Positions 7,788-39,523 of a stretch of DNA of 64,000 bases are shown here, one piece after another. The notes below the pieces were generated by a model. That model was not told the origin of the DNA and did not search any database. It saw only the letters and a list, made by a program, of their open reading frames with translations. Position 1 is the first letter of the stretch; each line of letters begins with the position of its first letter. The DNA is from Sulfurimonas hongkongensis (GTDB lineage: Bacteria > Campylobacterota > Campylobacteria > Campylobacterales > Sulfurimonadaceae). A program made the translations under genes and the position numbers. The stretch is from the NCBI RefSeq assembly GCF_000445475.1, contig NZ_AUPZ01000009.1:62001-126000 (forward strand). The letters are read 5' to 3'.

Positions 7788-8401
7788 TATTTAGCCCCAC
7801 CTATCAGAGTTTCCCATACCGCTTTTTCGATCACTATTGAACGATAATTAGCAGCTAAATAAGCATTTAATTCATTAGCTTCAACAACATAAGTTTGGTG
7901 AAGATTTTCAAACGCCAAATAAGTTTTTTCATCTAATAAAGACTTTACAAAAAGAGCATCTCTTTGGTTAAGTGCTTTAAACATCTCATTTGCATCTTTA
8001 GTTTTACCAGATGCTACTTCAATGCTATCAACGATGAATAGACTACCATTATTTGCATGCTCAGCTAGAGCAAAGTTAAGAGCAAGCTTCTTTTGCTTTT
8101 TATTAACTTTAAGGTCATAGTTACGATTGTTACTAGAACCAAATGCCTTACCACCGCCCACAAATATAGGAGAACGACGAGAACCCGCACGAGCGCGTCC
8201 GCCACCCTTTTGGGCCCATGGCTTTTTACCACCACCTCTAACTTCGCTTCTACCTTTTGTAGTAGCGCTGTTTGCACGCTGTGCAGCTTGAGCTGACTTT
8301 ACATACAGATATAAGTTATGAGGGTTAATACCAGAGAAACTCTCTGGAAGTGCTAACTCAGATGCTTTTTGCATTTTATCATTTAAAACGATTGCGCTCA
8401 T
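7787..8401 (-). CDS. rplD: 50S ribosomal protein L4
   Basis: 204 residues with the L4 loop [36 protein letters not shown] that reaches into the exit tunnel, and a C-terminal Rossmann-like part. In E. coli L4 represses the S10 operon through its leader; a leader hairpin is also present here (9335-9351), but whether it is an L4 target is inference. One-base overlaps with rplW and rplC. Confidence 0.97.
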
Positions 8402-8991
8402 TATTTAGCTACCTTTACACGACCTAAAGAACCATTTGCTCCTGGAACTGAGCCAATTACCGCAATGATATTGTTCTCAGCGTCATAAGAAATGATCTCA
8501 TTTTTAACACTATTTTGTGTGTTTCCGTATTGTCCAGGCATTTTTTTGCCCTTCATAACGCGACCTGGCCACTCTGCATTACCGATTGAACCTGTTCTAC
8601 GACCAAATCTATGACCGTGAGATGCAGGACCACCAGAAAAATTCCAACGCTTCATTGCTCCAGAGAAACCGCGACCTTTAGTAGTGAAAGTAGATTTTAA
8701 AACTTTAGCCTCCGCTAAAGGTGTTAAATCTAACTCACCAGCTTCAGTATTTGCTACTTCTAAAGTAACAAAACGGTTAAACTCAGATGAAAGGTTGTAT
8801 TTCTTTTGCTGACCTTCTATTGCTTTATTCATTTTTTTACCGCTGTTGTAAGCTACAATAGCAGTTGCTACATTTCCGTCTTTTGCATTAACTTCACATA
8901 CCTTAGAATCAAGAACTCTTAAAAGAGTAACTGGTTTACTTGGTACTGTGATTGTTCGGCTCATGCCGACTTTTTCAACAATATATTCCAT
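8401..8991 (-). CDS. rplC: 50S ribosomal protein L3
   Basis: 196 residues. Starts [14 protein letters not shown] and contains the signature [36 protein letters not shown] followed by the MPGQYGNTQ loop. The Gln in MPGQ is the residue methylated in many bacteria. L3 is an early 50S assembly protein. Confidence 0.97.
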
Positions 8992-9001
8992 AACCTACTC
9001 C

Positions 9002-9313
9002 TTACTTATCCATAGAGCGTACTTCTACGTCTACCTCTGGTGCAAGATCAAGCTTCATAAGAGAATCAACTGTCTCAGGTGTAGCTGAAACTATGTCAAT
9101 AACTCTAGCGTGCATACGAATCTCAAATTGCTCACGAGCCTTTTTGTTAACGTGAACCGATTTAAGAACCGTATATTTGCGAATCTTTGTAGGTAAAGGG
9201 ATTGGACCACGAATTGCAGCACCTGTACGCTTTACAGCCTCAACTATTGATGCTACTGATCTATCAAGTACACGATGATCGTAAGCTTTCAATTTTAAAC
9301 GAATTTTTTCCAT
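9002..9313 (-). CDS. rpsJ: 30S ribosomal protein S10
   Basis: 103 residues: [19 protein letters not shown], then [38 protein letters not shown]. First gene of the S10 operon. S10 also acts as NusE in antitermination complexes. Preceded by a good ribosome-binding site and the promoter at 9369-9397. Confidence 0.98.
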
Positions 9314-9334
9314 GTTTTTCCTTCTAAAGAACTC

Positions 9335-9351
9335 GTCAGGTCCTGCCTGAC
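9335..9351 (-). promoter_or_regulatory. Leader hairpin upstream of rpsJ
   Basis: A perfect 6-bp stem (GTCAGG/CCTGAC, loop of 5) lies within the predicted untranslated leader between the -10 box and rpsJ. It could be involved in autoregulation or antitermination, but the sequence alone does not say which. Confidence 0.5.
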
Positions 9352-9368
9352 TATATTAAGGGAGCGGA

Positions 9369-9397
9369 ATTGTACCCAAATGAGTTTGGATATTCAA
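9369..9397 (-). promoter_or_regulatory. Promoter of the S10 operon
   Basis: On the minus strand a TTGAAT -35 box (9392-9397) is separated by exactly 17 nt from a TACAAT -10 box (9369-9374), about 55 nt upstream of the rpsJ ATG. This is the only near-consensus promoter seen upstream of the ribosomal genes and probably drives the whole cluster. Confidence 0.75.
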
Positions 9398-9469
9398 GAG
9401 TTTTAGCATAAAAATCTAATATTTAGTAAAATTTACTTCCTTTAAGAAAGGAAATGATAAAATTTCTTT

Positions 9470-10537
9470 ATGGATATACTACTTCAAGAATTATACAAAA
9501 TTGATATTAGCTCAGACAAATTTCACTCAAGAAAAGTTCACTTAGATAACAAGAGTTATCAGATAAATGGTATCACACAAAGTGGAAAGACAAAACTTGT
9601 AAAAAACTTTCTTTTAAGTCTTAAAAAAACAAGCTATCTATATATAGACTGCTCCGACATCAGAATAGTCATAGATGAACTAAACAACTCACTTGCAAAG
9701 TTTTGTAACCTCAACAAGATAAATACTCTAGTCTTAGATAACTACACAAGTGCCATCAAGATACCAAATGTACCTCAGCTTATTATCTGTTCACAAGTAC
9801 ATCATGATATTACATATTTAGAGAGTGTTTGGCTCTATCCACTTGACTATGAGGAGTTTTTGGCTTTTGAGTATAAGTATGACTCAACCGCACTTAACCA
9901 CTTTATTCAACTAGGTGGGTTTGCATCTATGCACAAAATTTTAAGTGATGAGAGAAATATCTATATACAAAAGACCCTACAATACGCGCTAGATAATGTT
10001 GAGTTTGACATCTTAGTTTTGTGTGCAAAGATGATGGCTCAAAAACTCTCACCATTTTCTATCTATGAGAGACTCAAACAAAGCAGAAAAATATCTAAAG
10101 ACAAACTATATATATCTTTTGACTCACTTGTTGAAAAAAGATATATTCATCTTCTAGCTAAAAATGAACATCCAAAGGCTACTAAGAAGATCTATCTTTG
10201 CGATATCTCTTTAAAGTCAGCTCTCTCATTAGATAAAAACTTCTCAAGACTCTTTGAAAATATGGTCTATTTAGAGCTTTTAAAGTCTGGTATAACTTGT
10301 TTTTACGATGATGGTGTTGATTTTTATATCCCCTCAAGAGATGAGATAATTTTATGCAAGCCCTTTGGAGATGAGAGAAGTTTGTTTAAAAAAATGCAAC
10401 TACTTGAATCTTTTATCTTTAGTTATAAGATAAAAAAAGTAACAACCATCACAATGAACACTGAGGGAAGCTTAAGTCATCCTCTCTCAAAGGTTGAGAT
10501 GCTACCATTTGATATTTGGGCACTAGGAGATTTATGA
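9470..10537 (+). CDS. AAA_14/DUF4143-type ATPase of unknown role
   Basis: 355 residues. A Walker A motif (GITQSGKT, residues 34-41) and a Walker B-like strand (NTLVLDN, about 85-91) are followed by a C-terminal part (FENMVYLELLKSG ... DDGVDFYIP) that resembles the DUF4143 nuclease-like module of AAA_14 ATPases. Its substrate is not known. The final codons overlap rnhB as an ATGA junction, so the two are co-translated. A perfect inverted repeat (TTCCTTT/AAAGGAA, 9437-9453) precedes the start. A -10-like element at 9455-9463 lies so close to the ATG that the mRNA could be nearly leaderless. Confidence 0.75.
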   Translation: MDILLQELYKIDISSDKFHSRKVHLDNKSYQINGITQSGKTKLVKNFLLSLKKTSYLYIDCSDIRIVIDELNNSLAKFCNLNKINTLVLDNYTSAIKIPNVPQLIICSQVHHDITYLESVWLYPLDYEEFLAFEYKYDSTALNHFIQLGGFASMHKILSDERNIYIQKTLQYALDNVEFDILVLCAKMMAQKLSPFSIYERLKQSRKISKDKLYISFDSLVEKRYIHLLAKNEHPKATKKIYLCDISLKSALSLDKNFSRLFENMVYLELLKSGITCFYDDGVDFYIPSRDEIILCKPFGDERSLFKKMQLLESFIFSYKIKKVTTITMNTEGSLSHPLSKVEMLPFDIWALGDL

Positions 10538-11103
10538 GTAATATAAAGGATTGTAGAGTGTTATGTGGGATCGATGAGGCAGGACGTGGACCTCTTGCTG
10601 GAGACTTAGTTATAGCTGGATGTGTTTTAAACTCGCCTGTAGAGGGATTAAATGATTCTAAAAAACTTAGTGCGAAAAAAAGAGAGTTTTTGTTTGAAGA
10701 GATTGTAAAAAACTCAAACTTTCATATAGTAAAAATTTCACCTAAGAGCATAGATGCTGATGGTTTATCTCTTTGCATCAAACGAGGACTTCTAGAGATT
10801 GTAAAAAATATGCCAGATTGTGAGTATCTCTTTGATGGAAACTCTAACTTTGGAGTAAGTCAAATTGAGACTATGATAAAGGCTGATGGTAAGGTAGTCG
10901 AGGTTAGTGCAGCATCTATTTTAGCGAAAGTAACTCATGATAGGGATATTTTGCGTGAAGCTAAAAAATATCCAGAGTATCAGTTTGAAAAACATAAAGG
11001 CTACGGTACAGCTCTGCATGTTGAGATGATTAAAAAGTATGGGTATTGCAAGATCCATAGAAGAAGTTATAAACTAAAAGCACTTGAGGCAAGATTGTTT
11101 TAA
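10534..11103 (+). CDS. rnhB: Ribonuclease HII
   Basis: About 189 residues from the ATG at 10534. CGIDEAGRGPLAGDLVIAG carries the D-E catalytic pair. Further motifs are LNDSKKLSAKKRE, ADGKVVEVSAASILAKVTHDR and KHKGYGTALH. The enzyme cleaves RNA in RNA-DNA hybrids and at single ribonucleotides in DNA. A frame six codons longer exists, but the ATGA overlap with the upstream ATPase fixes the likely start. Confidence 0.96.
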   Translation: MSNIKDCRVLCGIDEAGRGPLAGDLVIAGCVLNSPVEGLNDSKKLSAKKREFLFEEIVKNSNFHIVKISPKSIDADGLSLCIKRGLLEIVKNMPDCEYLFDGNSNFGVSQIETMIKADGKVVEVSAASILAKVTHDRDILREAKKYPEYQFEKHKGYGTALHVEMIKKYGYCKIHRRSYKLKALEARLF

Positions 11104-11117
11104 AAAAGTCTTATTAT

Positions 11118-11669
11118 CTAGTTTGTAGCCGTCGCGTTTAGTGCAAGTATTGCCATATTTTGCATATGTGTTGTGATATCTTTTTTTGCATCAACTGCTT
11201 TTTTTAACTCTTGTATAAAATACTCTTTAGTTTGTTCATCTGCTAGGTTAAATACATATAAGACCCACTCAGTATTTAACTGTATATCCTCTTGTTCTTT
11301 TGTTACTTCGAAAACTCTGTAGAGATTTATGTCGGTTTCTTTTAAAAGCCCTAGCACTTCTGTGTAAAAAGGTGTAACATCATAGTTTAAAAGAGATTGT
11401 AGCTCTTTTTTTGAGATAGTTGCATCTGTATCAAAAACGCCATCTTTACCAACTATAAGAGCATCTCCCACAATAAGCTGTTCACCTAAAAAAAATGCTT
11501 TTTTGCATTTTGATATTGCATTGGCATCTGCGTGTATTGTATGCTTGTTTAGAGTTAGAAGTTCATCCGTTAATATAGAGTCAAAAAAACTATAAACAGT
11601 ATCTGCCTGCATAATAATGTCTATAGATTTTATCTCTTTTGTGTTTGAATCAATAGTATAAGCTTTCAT
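11118..11669 (-). CDS. Hypothetical protein
   Basis: 183 residues, acidic, without signal peptide, membrane segment or a motif I recognise. It has alternating helix-prone stretches (KEYFIQELKKAVDAKKDITTH near the C-terminus). It lies immediately downstream of moeA (stop/start within 1 nt), so it is part of the moaD-moaE-moeA operon, which hints at but does not prove a role linked to molybdopterin metabolism. Confidence 0.7.
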   Translation of the reverse strand: MKAYTIDSNTKEIKSIDIIMQADTVYSFFDSILTDELLTLNKHTIHADANAISKCKKAFFLGEQLIVGDALIVGKDGVFDTDATISKKELQSLLNYDVTPFYTEVLGLLKETDINLYRVFEVTKEQEDIQLNTEWVLYVFNLADEQTKEYFIQELKKAVDAKKDITTHMQNMAILALNATATN

Positions 11670-12887
11670 TTAAAAATTCTCCAATAAGATCACATTTACA
11701 AAAGTACCCTCTTCTAAGTCACCATCTTCTTCGCTAGTTACCATCAAAGCACTGCCGTGTAAAAGGTTAGTTAAAATAGCTGAGCTTCCAACTTTTTTGC
11801 CCTCAAAGTCAACTAAAAATTCTCCATTTTCTACACTTACATTACAAGCACTAAACTCACTAAGATGGCTTCTTTTTTTAAAGCTCTCTTTTAATTTTGC
11901 TTCTACTTTTTTGTAAGGTTTATCGCGTCCTAACATCTTAGCAACTAAAGGAAGTCCATAAAGCACTGCAGTAACAGTTGAAGAGTAGGCAAATCCTGGC
12001 AAGGCTAAGATAAACTTACCATTTTTTTGAGCCACCATAACATGACGACCCGGTTTTATAGCCACTCCTTTAAAAACAACCTCAGCACCAAGGCGGGGAA
12101 CTATATCTTTTACAAAGTCATAATCTCCAACGCTCACACCACCAGTACTTATAACGATATCAGCAGACGCAAGGGCATTTTGAAACATCTTCATGATGGA
12201 GTCTTTATCATCAGGTGCAGTTCCCAGCTGCAAAGACTCTGCTCCAGCTTGAGTAAACATGGCACAAAGTGTATAGTTGTTTGAGCTTCTTATCTGAGCT
12301 GGATTATCGCTTTGTTCTCCAAGATCTAAAATCTCGCTACCAGTAGAGATGACTGCTACTCTAGGTTTTATAGCAACTCTGACCATAACTCGATTTAGTC
12401 CAGCCATTACGCCAATCTCAGCAAAGCCTATCTTGGTTCCCTTTTTTATAAGTACATCACCCACCTTATAACTCTCACCAATGGGGCGAACTGATGAGCC
12501 AAAAGGAACTCTCTCATCTATAAATATCTCATCGCTGTTCTGACTTACACTTACATTTTCTATCTGAATCAGAGTATCACTTCCCTCTGGCATCATTGAG
12601 CCTGTAAAGGTTTTGATACACTCACCAGTTTCTACAACTCTTTTCTCATCACTCCCTGCTGGGTTATCTCCGAGAATCTTTATGCTATCTTTGTCTAAGT
12701 CTGCATATTTTATAGCGTATCCATCCATAGATGCTGTTGGGAACTGAGGATCATTAGCTTGTGCCACTATATCCTCAGCCAAAACTCTTCCCAAAGAAGC
12801 ACTAAGCACTACCTTTTCTTTTTTTATATTTCCAGTATCTAGCAAATCTAGCATATTTAAACTTGTCTCAAAAGATAGTAGCTTCAT
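11670..12887 (-). CDS. moeA: Molybdopterin molybdenumtransferase MoeA
   Basis: 405 residues, the usual length. Motifs: DGYAIKY, the STGSEILDLG segment, the MoCF-binding GGVSVGDYDFVKDIV and the LPGFAYSSTVTAVLYGLPL region. MoeA inserts molybdate into adenylylated molybdopterin to make Moco in the cytoplasm. It overlaps moaE by 4 nt and is followed by a hypothetical gene. The modABC uptake operon at 43204-45885 would supply its substrate. Confidence 0.96.
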   Translation of the reverse strand: MKLLSFETSLNMLDLLDTGNIKKEKVVLSASLGRVLAEDIVAQANDPQFPTASMDGYAIKYADLDKDSIKILGDNPAGSDEKRVVETGECIKTFTGSMMPEGSDTLIQIENVSVSQNSDEIFIDERVPFGSSVRPIGESYKVGDVLIKKGTKIGFAEIGVMAGLNRVMVRVAIKPRVAVISTGSEILDLGEQSDNPAQIRSSNNYTLCAMFTQAGAESLQLGTAPDDKDSIMKMFQNALASADIVISTGGVSVGDYDFVKDIVPRLGAEVVFKGVAIKPGRHVMVAQKNGKFILALPGFAYSSTVTAVLYGLPLVAKMLGRDKPYKKVEAKLKESFKKRSHLSEFSACNVSVENGEFLVDFEGKKVGSSAILTNLLHGSALMVTSEEDGDLEEGTFVNVILLENF

Positions 12888-13348
12888 CTTTTATCTTCCT
12901 TACTTCTCTCATCACTAAGTAGTCCACTTCCCTTTATGGCTGTTGATCTCTCTTTGGCGTAAATTCTCTCACCACCCCTTAGATCATACTTCCAAATAGG
13001 AGCAGAGGCTTTAAAATCTTCTACAAATTCATCTATAAACTCTAAGGCTACTCGTCTCTTTGGAGAAAATACTGCTGCAATATATGAGGACTCATGAAGC
13101 ATTACATCCCCCCTTGAGTGTGCCATCTTTATGATGGCATCTTTTGCTTTTGCCTTTTTTTGCCACTCATCAAACCACTTATTTAGTATGGGTTCATATA
13201 TGTCAAAACTAAGTCCATCTATCTCATCTTCGCTTCTTACAGTTCCCACAAAAGATATAAAAGCACCATAATTACTATGAGCTTCTTCTTCATACCAACC
13301 TTTTAAAATAGATGCAACGCTAAGCGAGCCATCATAAAGCTCTAGCAT
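12884..13348 (-). CDS. moaE: Molybdopterin synthase catalytic subunit MoaE
   Basis: 154 residues. Matches MoaE: NYGAFISFVGTVR near the N-terminus, MAHSRGDVMLHESSYIAAVFSPKRRVALEFIDEFVEDFKASAPIWKYD in the core with the PIWK lysine motif. It works with MoaD to convert cPMP to molybdopterin. Three nt downstream of moaD and overlapping moeA by 4 nt. Confidence 0.95.
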   Translation of the reverse strand: MLELYDGSLSVASILKGWYEEEAHSNYGAFISFVGTVRSEDEIDGLSFDIYEPILNKWFDEWQKKAKAKDAIIKMAHSRGDVMLHESSYIAAVFSPKRRVALEFIDEFVEDFKASAPIWKYDLRGGERIYAKERSTAIKGSGLLSDERSKEDKR

Positions 13349-34079: not shown

Positions 34080-34114
34080 TCTTATCCTTAAACTTTTTAG
34101 AAATCATGTAATTA

Positions 34115-34438
34115 TACACTTAAAGAAGATAGCTATAGAAAATGAAGAAGAAATGAGTCGCTTAGGCTTTAATAATTTAAAAAGTTGACTTTAAAGGTGT
34201 AACAGTTATACCCATCTCTACAAACATTTTTGGTGAAGACTTAAGAGTTTTTATACTCAAAAGAGACAAACTAAAAAAACAGAGTAAGGTTTGCATCAAT
34301 GAACTTTGCACCTTAGACATAACTAGAATACAACTAGACAATCTCCCAACAACTCTCTTAGAAGATAAGCTTGAAGAAGTAAACATGAAGCTCTTAAGAC
34401 ATTTTAAGACCCCTGCAAACCCCTTTGTGCTAAAATAG
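34115..34438 (+). pseudogene. Remnant of a MazEF-like toxin-antitoxin pair
   Basis: A plus-strand frame ending at 34180 reads KKIAIENEEEMSRLGFNNLKS-stop, like the acidic tail of an antitoxin. From 34181 another open frame, without a start codon, reads KVDFKGVTVIPISTNIFGEDL and continues through SKVCINELCTLDITRIQLDN to LLRHF. This resembles the C-terminal half of MazF/PemK toxins. The last ten codons (KTPANPFVLK-stop) are encoded by the CRISPR anti-repeat. The toxin N-terminus and most of the antitoxin are absent, so the pair cannot work. Family assignment is by pattern and moderately secure. Confidence 0.5.
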
Positions 34439-34517
34439 GGTCTCATACAGCCTTGTATAGTGGGGCGTATGAGAAGATTATGAGTGGTAAAATTTGACTT
34501 TTCATCTTCTTTTTGAG
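34401..34517 (+). ncRNA. Candidate tracrRNA
   Basis: 34401-34436 is an anti-repeat: its last 20 nt (AAACCCCTTTGTGCTAAAAT) are complementary to the first part of the CRISPR repeat at 34530, apart from a terminal G-U. Directly 3' is a perfect 8-bp stem (TCTCATAC 34441-34448 with GTATGAGA 34467-34474), then a weaker stem and a T-rich stretch (34509-34514). Anti-repeat ending in CTAAAAT followed by stem-loops is the arrangement of type II-C tracrRNAs such as that of Campylobacter jejuni. Transcribed opposite to cas2 and cas9. Confidence 0.75.
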
Positions 34518-34529
34518 TACAATATTTAT

Positions 34530-34568
34530 GTTTTAGCACAAAGGGGTTTGTGTAGCGGGACTTAAAAT
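34530..34568 (+). CRISPR. Single CRISPR repeat, no recognisable spacers
   Basis: A 36-39 nt unit beginning GTTTTAGCACAAAGGGG and ending ACTTAAAAT matches type II-C repeat form (GTTTTAG at the 5' end, TAAAAT-like 3' end). No second copy occurs in the window, so there is no repeat-spacer array. A TACAAT box at 34518-34523 could start transcription at the repeat. Orientation relative to the tracrRNA candidate is what base pairing requires. Confidence 0.6.
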
Positions 34569-34607
34569 AATCCTTCGACTTTATTGTCGTTGGAGATTTT
34601 GGAATCA

Positions 34608-34940
34608 TCAAAATAGCAATAGCTGTTTTGGTGCATTCTTTTCATTTTCTTCTTTTGTACCTACGATTATATCCATATTTCCAAACTGCTTATCTGTAAA
34701 CATAATCATCCTTATGCTTCCTTTTGCTATGTTTGAAGCTATAAAATCTTTGAGCCTTTTTTTTCCATTTAAAGTTGATTCGTAAGAGTGAAATGAGCGA
34801 ATGTAGATAGAAAACTGCATCATCATATACCCTTCTTTTAGAAGCTCACCACGTAAATAACGGTACTTCTTTCTTGCTTTTTTTGTATCGGTCGGCATAT
34901 CAAACATTACCATTAGCCACATAAATCTATAAGCACTCAT
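34608..34940 (-). CDS. cas2: CRISPR-associated endonuclease Cas2
   Basis: 110 residues from the ATG at 34940 (MSAYRFMWLMVMFDMPT), with the ferredoxin-like Cas2 core, the conserved first-strand Asp, the R-x-x-LL-KEGYMMMQFSIYIR segment and TDKQFGNMDII. Length is typical for type II Cas2. It overlaps the 3' end of cas9-cas1 by 14 nt, as cas1 and cas2 normally overlap. An upstream start seven codons earlier is possible but less like the family. The gene appears intact. Confidence 0.93.
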   Translation of the reverse strand: MSAYRFMWLMVMFDMPTDTKKARKKYRYLRGELLKEGYMMMQFSIYIRSFHSYESTLNGKKRLKDFIASNIAKGSIRMIMFTDKQFGNMDIIVGTKEENEKNAPKQLLLF

Positions 34941-37900
34941 CTTCATACTTTTCAAAGTCAATGCTTGGGAGCATTAAGTAGAGTATCTTTTTTTGAAGCA
35001 CACATTTTTGTAACGATTGGACTGTCATATCTATTGCAGTTCTTATATTGCTTAGACCTCCGTTTATAGCTACGAATTCTAAATTTAAAATATTGACATA
35101 TTCTTGTTTTATTTGGCTAGTTAAGGCCTCATCATCATATTTTAAAAGAGTTAGTTTTACATGCAGATCCACAAAAGCTCTATATGGTTCTATCATATCA
35201 TCTGCAAGATTAAAAGCGTTGAAATAGTTTTGATGGTGGATTCCAAAAGATGGCATAAGCCCCGCATTTGTGAGTGAACGGACAACAGCACTTCTTACAA
35301 TTGCATAGCAGTAGTTAAGCGAAGCATTTTGCACATCTTCTGCTCCTTTTTGTACTCTTACAAAGTTTTCAAATAATTCGCTCCAGTAGATTCTTGCTGC
35401 TTTTGCTTCTACATTTTCCTCATCATTTGACTTGACACCCTTTGCATACTCGTAGAGAATCTTAGAAGATTTTTTTCTGTTAAAATAGTTTAAAACTGAT
35501 GCTTGATTTTTCACTTTTGTTTTAACTACTTCTTGCCAAAGTTGTTTTTTAAGTGGTTTTGATATATCTATCTGGTTGTGCTTGGATACTTTGTTTTTTA
35601 CATAACTTCTTATGTCAATCCTTTGAAGTTTTAGTTTTTTAGCATCTATAAAACTACATCTAAGACAGACAAGTGAAGGAGCTGTATAAGCCAAGCCTCC
35701 TCTTACTTCTATAGAAGCATCCTCTCCTACTCTTTTTACTCTTCGTATCTCATTACCGTTTACATCGTATAGAGGCTCATTCATAGTATCTCGTACTTTT
35801 ATATCAAGCTCGGCTTTATCATCTTTTGTGATTGCAAAAGCCGATTGGTTCAAGATATTTACGATGGCATCTCTTTTTTTTGCAAATACTTTTGCTGTAA
35901 AATCTTTTGGATTATCTTGAGCAACTTGGATTTTTTTATAAATCTCTTTATTAAATTTTTTATAAAATTCATCGGAACTCATTTTGTGACTCGGTTTGAC
36001 TTTATCTAGCAGAGAACCAATCGGCACATAGTAAGCCAAATTTTTCTTAGATTGAATCGTCTCATTATGTGCCTTTGTTCCTATCGGTTTTTTAGAGACC
36101 CAAAAGGCTGGAGTTTTAAGAGTTCCATCAAGTGCTTTATAAAAAGGACTCTCTTGTATATCTTGCATGTAACTCTCTCTTATATGGGCAATTATATGAT
36201 TAGGGGATGTTCCTTCTATGAGTGGAACAATCTTTTTAAAGTTCTCTTTTGCATTTTGTTCGGTAAGCTCATAATTTTTCTCAAAATTTGTAGAGATATT
36301 TTGTAAGTAAGATTTACTCATTAAACCTAGGAGAATAGCATCCTCGGCATGATGAAAGTTTGTATCACGAGACTTGTTATCGACACTTAGTATGCGTCTT
36401 AGGTAACTTGTAGCACGCCCAGAGATAGACATCACTCTTTGATTCTCTTTGAGTCTGTCTGTAAAAGGGTAGTAGCGTTTTAAAATCTCACCCAAAAGTT
36501 TTTCAGTATAGCTTGTTGCATGGAGCGATACATCATCTTTTACCTCTTTAAAGGTTTTATCTAAGCTCTCGGCTAAGAGATTTATTTTTTTCTTCATATT
36601 TATCTTATAGGTTTTTTTTAACTCTTCTACAAAGTCAATATAAATTTTTCTCTTTTCTCCACTTAAATAATCAAGAGGTAGCTTATTACCTTTTTTAGCA
36701 TTTTCATTTTTTAAATCAAGAGCCTTGTTGTACTCTGCATTGCTTCCGCCACAAGCACGAGGAACAATGTGTTCTATCTCTGTTTTATCACTCAAGACTT
36801 CATCAATACTAAGCGGTTTATGTGAGTAGATTCCTAGTCCTTTTTGTTGCTCCCAAAGCTTAAGTTTTAGAAGATACTCTTTATTATTTTGAAGATTTAA
36901 TCCCTTTGCTTCAAAATGTTTTTTGTATTTTTCAATGAGCTCTTGCCACTCTTTTTCATTTTTTTGGTTTGCTCTTCTAATGTCATTTTTTACATCATCA
37001 GGCTGTGAGAGTTCTCTAGTAGATTCTAGTTTTATGATATCAAAAGGTCCATGTTTGACATGCAAATCAGTTATAACTCGAAGTGCCCATGAGACTAGAG
37101 ATTTTACAGCATGGTTAGATATACGATTCTCATCTATCTCGTACTGTAGTTTTCCATCTTTATTTTGAGATTTTAGATATCTAATGCCTTTTAAAAAATC
37201 GGAATAGTTTTCGCTTTTACTGACTTTTAAAATCCCTTTTGCATCACTCTCATTTTTACCCTCTTGCATTAAAGCAGTTAAATCTTTTAATGCTTTTAGT
37301 GAATAATTTGAAGTTCCTTTTGATTTATGTTTATGAAGTTTAAGAGTAAAATCACAAATCTCATCTTTGGTAAACTCAAAATTGTATTTTTTAAAAAGTA
37401 TTTCAATGTTTATTAAAAGTTTTTCAGGATTTATATTTAGATGTATCTCTGTTGCGATTTCATCAAAGATTTTTGCAGATGACTCTTGTGCTAAGATGGC
37501 ACTTAAAATTTTACGATTCAATTTTTTAAAAGAAGGAAGAAAATTAAATTTAACAAGAGTATTTGCCTCTTTTTTTCCTTTAAGCATTTTATACTCTTGA
37601 AAATTATTGATTTTTACATATTCATTATCAATTCCTAGTATCTTTTTAAAATCTTTTACACTATAAGAGCTTTTGCACTTCAAACTATTTATATCTTCTA
37701 AAAGTGCTTCACGCAACTGCTCTTTTTGCTCTAAAGTTGCATCAGCACCGTCAATCTTCAGATCTCCAAGTAACTTATATAGTTCAAATATATCAAATGA
37801 GTATGAAAAAAGAGGTGCACATATCTCATCTTTATAGATTAGACATTTATTGATATTTTCTGGATTTAGCGTAACAGCTTCTTGCGGGATGATGATGTTT

Positions 37901-38601
37901 ATCACTTCATTGGTAAATTTAGCGGCCAACTCATCACTTTTAAAAAAATCAAACTTTTGCTGAGCTCCTAAGATTTTTTCTATCTCTTTTTTTATGTCTT
38001 CTCTACGTATCATATAGCGGTAGTTACCATGATTTCTAAAAGTAGGATTCTCTTTTTGAGATTCTAGCTCCCAAATAATTTGTGCAGATGTTTTCTCTTT
38101 GTATTTGCACTTTAGAGCATCTAAGTATGCCAGTGTTTCAGAAAACTTCTCCAAATCTTTTGGCATCTGGATTTCATCACTCCCGCAATCACCCATCTTC
38201 TCTTTTGCTTCAAGTTCGGCTATCAAATCTTCTATTTTTAGTGATTTATACCCTCTATGCTTTGCCATAAATCTAAAAATTGCATAGAGCTCATCATTGT
38301 CAAGTTTTCTCTTAAATGCATCTACCGCTCTTAATTTCCAAATATCATATCTCTTTTTTTCTTGATACTTAAGGTGATAAGAGGCAAAGAGCTGCTTTAT
38401 CTCTTTAATCCTCTTTTTTTTCTTATCAAGAAGATTTCGAGATTGTTTTTTCTCTCGTCTTTCTTGTTGGGTACCACTATCATGAGGATTGTCACGCATT
38501 ACTACGCCATAATCTAAAAGAGAGTAGCTATTTTTTTCAAGCTCTTGCATTACAGAATATCCGCAAGAGGTAACGCCTAAGTCTAATGATAAAATATTCA
38601 T
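34927..38601 (-). CDS. cas9-cas1: Fused type II-C Cas9-Cas1 protein
   Basis: 1224 residues in one uninterrupted frame. Residues 1 to about 1005 are Cas9: RuvC-I D7 (LSLDLGVTSCGY), Arg/Lys-rich bridge helix (about 45-75), AKHRGYKS (113-120), RuvC-II E526 (IIKLESTREL), HNH H611 (EIEHIVPRA) with N634 (ENAKKGN), RuvC-III H751 and D754 (FHHAEDA), then the start of the WED region (about 945-980). It resembles Nitratifractor salsuginis Cas9 as I recall it. From about Q1010 (QIDISKPLKKQLWQEVV) to the end it is Cas1, with E1065 (NVEAKAAR), H1123 (GIHHQN) and D1134/D1135/E1138 (LADDMIEPYR). Missing are about 140-150 C-terminal residues of Cas9 (PAM-interacting region) and about 95 N-terminal residues of Cas1. 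RBS AAGGAT precedes the ATG. Confidence 0.9.
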   Translation of the reverse strand: MNILSLDLGVTSCGYSVMQELEKNSYSLLDYGVVMRDNPHDSGTQQERREKKQSRNLLDKKKKRIKEIKQLFASYHLKYQEKKRYDIWKLRAVDAFKRKLDNDELYAIFRFMAKHRGYKSLKIEDLIAELEAKEKMGDCGSDEIQMPKDLEKFSETLAYLDALKCKYKEKTSAQIIWELESQKENPTFRNHGNYRYMIRREDIKKEIEKILGAQQKFDFFKSDELAAKFTNEVINIIIPQEAVTLNPENINKCLIYKDEICAPLFSYSFDIFELYKLLGDLKIDGADATLEQKEQLREALLEDINSLKCKSSYSVKDFKKILGIDNEYVKINNFQEYKMLKGKKEANTLVKFNFLPSFKKLNRKILSAILAQESSAKIFDEIATEIHLNINPEKLLINIEILFKKYNFEFTKDEICDFTLKLHKHKSKGTSNYSLKALKDLTALMQEGKNESDAKGILKVSKSENYSDFLKGIRYLKSQNKDGKLQYEIDENRISNHAVKSLVSWALRVITDLHVKHGPFDIIKLESTRELSQPDDVKNDIRRANQKNEKEWQELIEKYKKHFEAKGLNLQNNKEYLLKLKLWEQQKGLGIYSHKPLSIDEVLSDKTEIEHIVPRACGGSNAEYNKALDLKNENAKKGNKLPLDYLSGEKRKIYIDFVEELKKTYKINMKKKINLLAESLDKTFKEVKDDVSLHATSYTEKLLGEILKRYYPFTDRLKENQRVMSISGRATSYLRRILSVDNKSRDTNFHHAEDAILLGLMSKSYLQNISTNFEKNYELTEQNAKENFKKIVPLIEGTSPNHIIAHIRESYMQDIQESPFYKALDGTLKTPAFWVSKKPIGTKAHNETIQSKKNLAYYVPIGSLLDKVKPSHKMSSDEFYKKFNKEIYKKIQVAQDNPKDFTAKVFAKKRDAIVNILNQSAFAITKDDKAELDIKVRDTMNEPLYDVNGNEIRRVKRVGEDASIEVRGGLAYTAPSLVCLRCSFIDAKKLKLQRIDIRSYVKNKVSKHNQIDISKPLKKQLWQEVVKTKVKNQASVLNYFNRKKSSKILYEYAKGVKSNDEENVEAKAARIYWSELFENFVRVQKGAEDVQNASLNYCYAIVRSAVVRSLTNAGLMPSFGIHHQNYFNAFNLADDMIEPYRAFVDLHVKLTLLKYDDEALTSQIKQEYVNILNLEFVAINGGLSNIRTAIDMTVQSLQKCVLQKKILYLMLPSIDFEKYEDECL

Positions 38602-38674
38602 AAAAGATCCTTATATTTTATTAGATTTAAACATCTTACAATAATTTATTTGTTTAAAAATCACATTATCTTAT

Positions 38675-39523
38675 TTATATTTCTACTAAAACCCCATAAG
38701 ATGTTGGTTGTCTATCTCGCAGAAGTCCCCAATACTCTCTTTGTTTTGCTATCTCCTCTAAATCAAACTCTGCATAAATAATCTCTTCTTTATCTCTTGA
38801 GGCCTCAGCAATTTTTTTGCCCGTGTAGTCTGTGATGAAAGATGAACCGTAAAATGTTAGAGTACAACTCTCCCCTACTTCTTCGCCTATACGGTTTGCA
38901 ACTACTACTGGAACTGTGTTTGTAGCGGCGTGACCCATCTGAACTCTTTGCCAGTGGTCTTTTGAGTCAACATGAATTTCTGGTTCACTCCCAATAGCAG
39001 TAGGATAGAAAATAATCTCAGCACCCATCAGAGTTAGAGCTCTTGCTGTCTCACAAAACCACTGATCCCAACAGATACCAACTCCAATCTTAGCGTACTT
39101 TGTGTTATAGACTTTAAAGCCACTATTTCCCGGTTTGAAGTAAAACTTCTCTTCATATCCAGGTCCACAGGGTATATGAGTTTTTCTATAGTTGTCCATA
39201 ATTTTGCCATCAGCATCTACCACAACTAAAGAGTTAAAATACTCTTTAGCACTTTTTTCAAAATAACTAACAAGCAAAACAACACCTAGCTCTTTTGCAA
39301 GAGTTGCAAATCTCTCTATAAGGCTACTGTCTTTAAGCTCTGAGGCTAAAGAGAAGTACTTATCATCCATATCTTTACAAAAGTACAAAGATGCAAACAA
39401 CTCTGGTAAAAGTATGATTTTTGCACCATTTTTATTTGCTTGTCTTACCAAAACCTCAGCATTTTTTATGTTGGCATCTATATCTTGGCTCATCTGCATC
39501 TGTATAGCTGAGACTTTTATCAT
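38675..39523 (-). CDS. aguB: N-carbamoylputrescine amidase
   Basis: 282 residues, nitrilase superfamily. The catalytic triad is visible: E41 (LLPELFAS), K114 (NYRKTHIP) and C151 (GICWDQWF). Motifs EEKFYFKPG and GSEPEIHVDSKDHWQRVQMGHAATN are diagnostic for AguB, which releases putrescine, CO2 and ammonia in polyamine synthesis. A Cys (119) stands after HIP where related enzymes usually have Asp. No agmatine deiminase gene is adjacent. Confidence 0.93.
   Translation of the reverse strand: MIKVSAIQMQMSQDIDANIKNAEVLVRQANKNGAKIILLPELFASLYFCKDMDDKYFSLASELKDSSLIERFATLAKELGVVLLVSYFEKSAKEYFNSLVVVDADGKIMDNYRKTHIPCGPGYEEKFYFKPGNSGFKVYNTKYAKIGVGICWDQWFCETARALTLMGAEIIFYPTAIGSEPEIHVDSKDHWQRVQMGHAATNTVPVVVANRIGEEVGESCTLTFYGSSFITDYTGKKIAEASRDKEEIIYAEFDLEEIAKQREYWGLLRDRQPTSYGVLVEI

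What the first reader, a model, noticed from the sequence alone, without database searches (positions are those of the whole stretch)
34927..38601. Cas9 and Cas1 joined in one reading frame
A single 1224-codon frame carries RuvC/HNH residues of a Nitratifractor-like Cas9 (D7, E526, H611, N634, H751, D754) and, after about residue 1010, the catalytic half of Cas1 (E1065, H1123, D1134/D1135). I recall Cas1 fusions with RT, Cas4 or Cas6-RT, and Cas2-Cas3 fusions, but no Cas9-Cas1 fusion. Either an in-frame deletion created a chimera, or a physical link between interference and adaptation is being maintained. The frame has no stops or frameshifts.
Basis: partly seen in the sequence, partly recalled or inferred. 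Interest (0 to 1): 0.92.

Follow-up and report, generated by a model that had tools for sequence, protein, structure and literature searches.

The report
Decayed CRISPR locus with deletion-made chimera
One bacterium (probably Sulfurimonas) carries an open reading frame joining most of Cas9 to two thirds of Cas1, but comparison with relatives shows that a small deletion in a decaying CRISPR system made it, so it is probably an evolutionary accident rather than a new kind of immune protein.

Summary
In detail: window 34927-38601 (-) is one open frame of 1224 codons joining a type II-C Cas9 (to about residue 1010) to the catalytic part of Cas1, with the named catalytic residues present. A maintained link between interference and adaptation is not supported. 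Same-genus genome G005 has the 81% identical locus intact: cas9, cas1 (4-nt overlap), cas2, anti-repeat and 17 repeats. Against it the window lacks one block of about 596 bp, with GATATAT shared at the break. The block holds the last 102 residues of Cas9 (7 of 18 invariant C-terminal columns; six predicted strands of the PAM-interacting domain) and about the first 93 of Cas1. The array is down to one repeat without spacers, and neither another repeat nor the deleted Cas9 end was found elsewhere in the genome, which also holds a type I-F system with 41 spacers. Relative G037 has a clean empty site. No other Cas9-Cas1 frame was found among 71 loci read or 397 genomes of the class. Best reading: a recent microhomology deletion in a decaying type II-C locus; the chimera is probably inactive in both roles (inferred, not tested).

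The parts
34927..38601 (-). chimeric open frame, 1224 aa: truncated Cas9 joined to truncated Cas1
35572..38601 (-). Cas9 part, residues 1 to about 1010; the last 102 residues of the intact homologue are absent
   Evidence: collinear with L035 8230-11269, 80.8% DNA identity; TIGR01865 1e-123
34930..35574 (-). Cas1 part, from about residue 94 of the intact homologue to its C-terminus; the N-terminal part is absent
   Evidence: collinear with L035 from 11853 on, 85.7% DNA identity; TIGR03639 from model position 75
35562..35574 (.). deletion breakpoint zone; the two arms share GATATAT in G005, 596 bp apart there
34608..34961 (-). cas2 (up to 117 aa; overlaps the 3' end of the chimera), open, 91% amino-acid identity to G005
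   Evidence: PF09827 and TIGR01573
34530..34640 (+). probable tracrRNA: anti-repeat 34530-34568 followed by two predicted hairpins and T-rich sequence; strand inferred from the C. jejuni arrangement (recalled)
34401..34436 (+). the only remaining CRISPR repeat (35 of 36 bases as in G005; first base A instead of G); no second repeat, no spacer
34181..34402 (+). fragment resembling the C-terminal two thirds of a PemK/MazF-type toxin, running into the repeat; probable remnant
   Evidence: PF02452 E=1.7e-4, 22.2 bits against a cut-off of 23.1; frame read
34100..38652 (.). whole segment absent from the same site in G037, where the nitrilase gene and the TolC-like gene are neighbours

Best explanation
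A type II-C CRISPR-Cas locus, absent from the same site in the near relative G037, has decayed. One deletion of about 596 bp between two short shared sequences removed the end of cas9 and the start of cas1. Because its length fits the frame shift between the two genes, the remainders read as one frame. Separately the array is down to a single repeat, as recombination between repeats would leave it. Shown: the collinearity, the missing block, the empty site, the lone repeat and the separate type I-F system. Inferred: the chimera cannot read a PAM properly because much of the PAM-interacting domain is gone, cannot form a normal Cas1-Cas2 integrase because the Cas1 N-terminal part is gone, and has no guide to use. 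The locus is therefore inactive, and the frame is still open mainly because the deletion is young.
For: G005 holds the intact form at 81% identity: cas9 1115 aa, cas1 308 aa, cas2, anti-repeat, 17 repeats. Collinearity on both sides of a 596-bp gap, with GATATAT shared at the break. No match to the deleted Cas9 end in the own genome, with G005 ringing as positive control; the only match to G005 Cas1 is the chimera, from residue 70 on. Seven of 18 invariant C-terminal Cas9 columns are deleted, and six strands of the modelled domain, which resembles the C-terminal domains of Nme1Cas9 and CjCas9 (modest scores). The repeat core is found nowhere else in the genome except in the anti-repeat. Type I-F genes with 42 repeats in the same genome. 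No second fused frame among 71 sources or 397 genomes.
Against: The frame has no stop and keeps its catalytic residues. Departures at columns invariant in five outgroup Cas9s are balanced (5 in G000, 6 in G005; majority columns 24 against 15; Cas1 2 against 0), so there is no clear decay signal in the letters. If neutral, about 51-78 substitutions (1.4-2.1%) would give a stop with 95% chance, so the deletion must be young or the frame still constrained. Pairwise dN/dS is low (0.080 Cas9 part, 0.095 Cas1 part, 0.061 cas2), though this mostly reflects time before the deletion. cas2 and tracrRNA look intact. No reads were seen, so a misassembly is not formally excluded.
Confidence: 0.88

Rival explanations
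1. The chimera is a maintained functional protein that couples Cas9 targeting to Cas1 chemistry, or a PAM-relaxed Cas9 carrying a Cas1 tail.
For: Open frame, catalytic residues of both halves kept, cas2 and tracrRNA look intact, no clear excess of changes at conserved sites.
Against: Found in one genome only; no spacers; much of the PAM-interacting domain and the Cas1 N-terminal part are gone, with 7 invariant Cas9 columns.
Confidence: 0.05
2. The joint is an assembly or sequencing artefact and the living strain has separate intact genes.
For: Only one assembly was available; no reads seen.
Against: The sequence shared at the break is about 7-13 nt, far too short to collapse in an assembly (general knowledge of assemblers); the joint is deep inside a 149.6-kb contig; the array is also reduced, a second sign of decay; no leftover pieces found elsewhere in the assembly.
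Confidence: 0.04
3. The truncated Cas9 part keeps a non-interference role, such as tracrRNA-bound regulation or DNA binding, and the Cas1 tail is passive baggage.
For: The RuvC and HNH residues and the tracrRNA are preserved; repeat and anti-repeat still pair well.
Against: PAM-dependent binding needs the domain that is largely deleted (established knowledge); no evidence of expression; no relative read here keeps such a form.
Confidence: 0.03

Closest known systems
Type II-C CRISPR-Cas (Nme/Cje-like cas9-cas1-cas2 with tracrRNA); intact counterpart in G005
   Same: gene content and order, 81% identical Cas9, the same repeat (35 of 36 bases) and anti-repeat, adjacent tracrRNA
   Different: cas9 and cas1 are joined by a deletion, and the array has one repeat and no spacers
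Natural Cas fusions: RT-Cas1, Cas4-Cas1; Cas2-Cas3 of type I-F
   Same: a cas adaptation gene in one frame with another domain
   Different: those recur in many genomes with their domains kept (recalled; the own genome's Cas2-3 is one example); this one is a singleton with both partners truncated at the joint
Engineered casposase(Cas1)-Cas9 fusion (described in PMC9939771, passages read; the original, Lau and Bolt 2021, was not read)
   Same: Cas1-like protein and Cas9 in one chain
   Different: engineered, from the archaeal casposase of A. boonei; not natural

Membership tests
Type II-C CRISPR-Cas locus | cas9 with RuvC and HNH motifs | tested here: met
   TIGR01865 1e-123, catalytic residues present, but C-terminus truncated
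Type II-C CRISPR-Cas locus | full-length cas1 | tested here: not met
   starts at model position 75 of 278; about 93 residues missing; one TIGR03639 match in the genome; the second Cas1 belongs to the type I-F genes
Type II-C CRISPR-Cas locus | cas2 | tested here: met
   TIGR01573 1.3e-15
Type II-C CRISPR-Cas locus | tracrRNA with anti-repeat | tested here: met
   anti-repeat pairs with the repeat, two hairpins predicted in both G000 and G005; transcription not tested
Type II-C CRISPR-Cas locus | array of at least two repeats with spacers | tested here: not met
   a single repeat; the 20-mer core occurs, within 3 mismatches, only there and in the anti-repeat
Type II-C CRISPR-Cas locus | no csn2 or cas4 beside the cas operon | tested here: inconclusive
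   the frames between the nitrilase and TolC-like genes were listed and read by eye only; no profile search for these two families was run
Conserved natural Cas fusion (like RT-Cas1) | recurs in several genomes | tested here: not met
   1 of 71 sources; of the TIGR03639 matches over the cut-off, in 88 of 397 genomes, only the window's lies in a frame above 454 aa; other phyla not surveyed apart from plasmids
Conserved natural Cas fusion (like RT-Cas1) | both domains complete | tested here: not met
   102 residues of Cas9 and about 93 of Cas1 missing
Conserved natural Cas fusion (like RT-Cas1) | both activities shown in one protein | not testable with these tools
   needs biochemistry

The most novel reading that the evidence does not exclude
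The chimera is expressed and active: a guide-RNA-binding Cas9 with a shortened PAM domain carrying a Cas1 catalytic tail, working with the intact Cas2, and the first natural one-chain link of Cas9 and Cas1.
Probability: 0.04. Interest if true: 0.85.

Novelty: new member of a known kind. Interest (0 to 1): 0.15.

Why it matters
As a natural fusion it would have linked interference and adaptation in one chain. As found, it is a clear snapshot of how a type II-C system dies: spacers gone, a small deletion fusing two overlapping genes, a second CRISPR type present in the same cell. It also warns that a long open frame with two Cas domains should be checked against relatives before it is called a fusion protein.

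Tried and rejected
Natural full-length fusions in relatives: one search listed open frames of 1284-1308 aa covering both Cas9 and Cas1 in six same-genus genomes (G016, G067, G072, G095, G099, G106). Reading the DNA showed a TAG (four) or TAA (two) ending cas9, with cas1 starting on its own ATG 3-30 nt further on, in the same frame; the tool's open frame had read through the stop. Rejected as fusions. Of the 14 loci of that Cas9 subfamily, cas1 is in the frame of cas9 in 6 and in another frame in 8 (recount), near the one third expected by chance.

Named organism by direct scan: (P0001 in genome contigs) confirmed no relative; (alignment A1) gave 50 loci. Viral contigs: none confirmed. Plasmids: 13 records, none at 60% identity or more; the one place covering at least 80% of the query lies over separately annotated cas9 and cas1 (10 of 13 records listed).

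For the intact C-terminal domain, pLDDT is 74, TM-scores of the Foldseek matches to Cas9 are at most 0.28 (normalised by the model), and VIA Z is at most 9.0, so the structural statement rests mainly on the deleted conserved columns.

Search for the PemK-like fragment in the held loci used a wrong frame, effectively three residues, and says nothing. Rfam gave only two weak matches far below the gathering scores.

54 of the 71 had a separate Cas1 frame within 3 kb on the same strand.

Full report
OBSERVATION. The window holds one open frame at 34927-38601 on the minus strand, 1224 codons without a stop. NCBIfam and Pfam recognise a type II Cas9 and, from residue 994 or 1018 on, a Cas1 that begins at position 75 of 278 (TIGR03639) or 97 of 283 (PF01867) of the family models. 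The other five frames of the stretch carry 56-154 stops each. The frame is deep inside a 149,565-bp contig of a 28-contig genome of 2.30 Mb listed as 100% complete.

WHERE IT COMES FROM. The genus is probably Sulfurimonas: contigs of the same-genus genomes G051, G049, G019, G107, G029 and G054 have the same lengths as named Sulfurimonas records.

THE INTACT COUNTERPART. Of 199 genomes, the own one included, 68 have some match. G005, in the same genus, has the same locus at 81-82% protein identity with separate genes. In L035 these are cas9 8230-11577 (1115 aa), cas1 11574-12500 (308 aa, four bases of overlap), cas2 12472-12819, an anti-repeat at 12859-12896, and 17 repeats of 36 nt with 16 different spacers of 30-31 nt. 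Window 38601-35562 is collinear with L035 8230-11269 (80.8%), and window 35574-34402 with L035 11853-13025 (85.7%). The shift between the two alignments is 596 bp, which is 2 modulo 3 and what brings cas1 into the frame of cas9. Both arms share GATATAT at the break. The simplest account is one deletion at a short microhomology. Keeping the frame has a one-in-three chance.

WHAT WAS LOST. Cas9 lost its last 102 residues (1014-1115 of G005) and Cas1 about its first 93. In an alignment of 18 Cas9 C-termini of this subfamily, 7 of 18 invariant columns lie in the deleted part. A model of the intact C-terminal 336 residues (mean pLDDT 74) shows six strands there. The model aligns with the C-terminal, PAM-interacting part of Nme1Cas9 (6jdq_A: Foldseek E 1.4e-5, TM 0.27; VIA Z 8.9, rmsd 7.5, 200 aligned) and of CjCas9 (5x2h_A: VIA Z 6.5, rmsd 6.1, 159 aligned). 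These are modest values. That this domain reads the PAM, and that the Cas1 N-terminal domain carries the dimer contact, is recalled knowledge, not tested here. The deleted Cas9 end gave no match in the own genome, while the same query finds G005. The only match to G005 Cas1 is the chimera itself, from residue 70 on. A second Cas1 in the genome belongs to another system.

THE REST OF THE LOCUS. Only one CRISPR repeat remains (34401-34436, 35 of 36 bases as in G005). Its 20-base core, with up to 3 mismatches, occurs at two places in the genome, this repeat and the anti-repeat. The region between repeat and anti-repeat is collinear with G005 and is not a spacer. The tracrRNA looks intact: repeat and anti-repeat pair at about -46 kcal/mol, and two hairpins are predicted after the anti-repeat in both G000 and G005 although their sequences differ. 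cas2 is open and 91% identical. On the other side the repeat abuts a PemK/MazF-like fragment (just below the Pfam cut-off).

EMPTY SITE AND SECOND SYSTEM. G037 is the closest genome by the nitrilase gene (91%) and also close by the TolC-like gene (86-88% in two contig pieces). There the two genes are neighbours and window 34100-38652 is missing with clean edges. G037 (listed as 96% complete) has no match to the chimera, with G005 ringing in the same search. G005 carries its locus between other genes. So the II-C locus sits at different places and may have been gained by transfer; loss in G037 is possible too. The own genome also has type I-F genes, cas1, cas2-3 and csy1-csy4, with 42 repeats and 41 spacers of 32 nt, so the II-C locus is not the only CRISPR system of the cell.

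IS THE CHIMERA KEPT BY SELECTION? Against G005, dN/dS is 0.080 (Cas9 part), 0.095 (Cas1 part) and 0.061 (cas2), with dS 1.23, 0.69 and 0.71; most of that divergence must predate the deletion. At columns invariant in five other Cas9s, G000 departs 5 times and G005 6 times; at majority columns 24 against 15. For Cas1 the counts are 2 against 0 at invariant columns and, at majority columns, 5 against 3 with four outgroups or 3 against 2 with six. The tilt towards G000 is slight and shows no clear acceleration. Under neutrality 51-78 substitutions, or 1.4-2.1% divergence, would bring a stop with 95% chance. The open frame therefore says only that the deletion is young or that constraint remains; it does not separate the two.

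DOES IT RECUR? Of 71 sources read stop to stop, only the window has both domains in one frame; 54 have a separate Cas1 within 3 kb (six sources are duplicates). In 397 genomes of the class, 88 hold a TIGR03639 match over the cut-off, and of those matches only the window's lies in a frame above 454 aa (longer frames of about 500-770 aa there are below the cut-off and are probably RT-Cas1 and the like, not examined). Six apparent long frames were a read-through of a stop. Other phyla were not surveyed beyond the plasmid collection and the few loci, because two searches failed on the handle.

LITERATURE. Two phrase searches for a Cas9-Cas1 fusion gave no paper, and one with six phrasings gave one, whose passages describe an engineered casposase-Cas9 fusion (PMC9939771, passages read). 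Wider searches returned nothing that, by title and start of abstract, bears on this case or no paper at all. The library lacks most subscription papers, so absence there is weak evidence.

VERDICT. The frame is real and the domains are as described, but the most likely cause is a recent deletion in a decaying type II-C locus. It is a new example of a known kind of event. Interest is low unless biochemistry or more strains show otherwise.

Noticed in passing
L105 (G000:C13:194000-213000): Type I-F CRISPR-Cas genes (cas1, cas2-3, csy1-csy4) with 42 repeats and 41 spacers in the own genome.
   Followed up: partly
window 34181-34402 (+): PemK/MazF-like toxin fragment, C-terminal part only, running into the remaining CRISPR repeat; suggests another deletion between array and toxin gene.
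   Followed up: partly
L036, L037, L038, L039, L040, L041: In six related II-C loci cas1 starts in the frame of cas9, 3-30 nt after its stop codon; loss of that one stop would give a full-length Cas9-Cas1 frame.
   Followed up: yes
window 38675-39523; L038 14373-15110; L047 15872-16598: The nitrilase-family gene next to this locus also lies about 3.5 kb from different II-C cas9 genes in G072 and G068; possibly a preferred neighbourhood for CRISPR loci.
   Followed up: no
window 34608-38601 against L035: Synonymous divergence from G005 is 1.23 in the Cas9 part but 0.69-0.71 in Cas1 and cas2; possible recombination within the locus.
   Followed up: no
Genome search output: The column open_frame_aa spanned a stop codon between two matches in six genomes, which gave false fusion frames.
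   Followed up: yes
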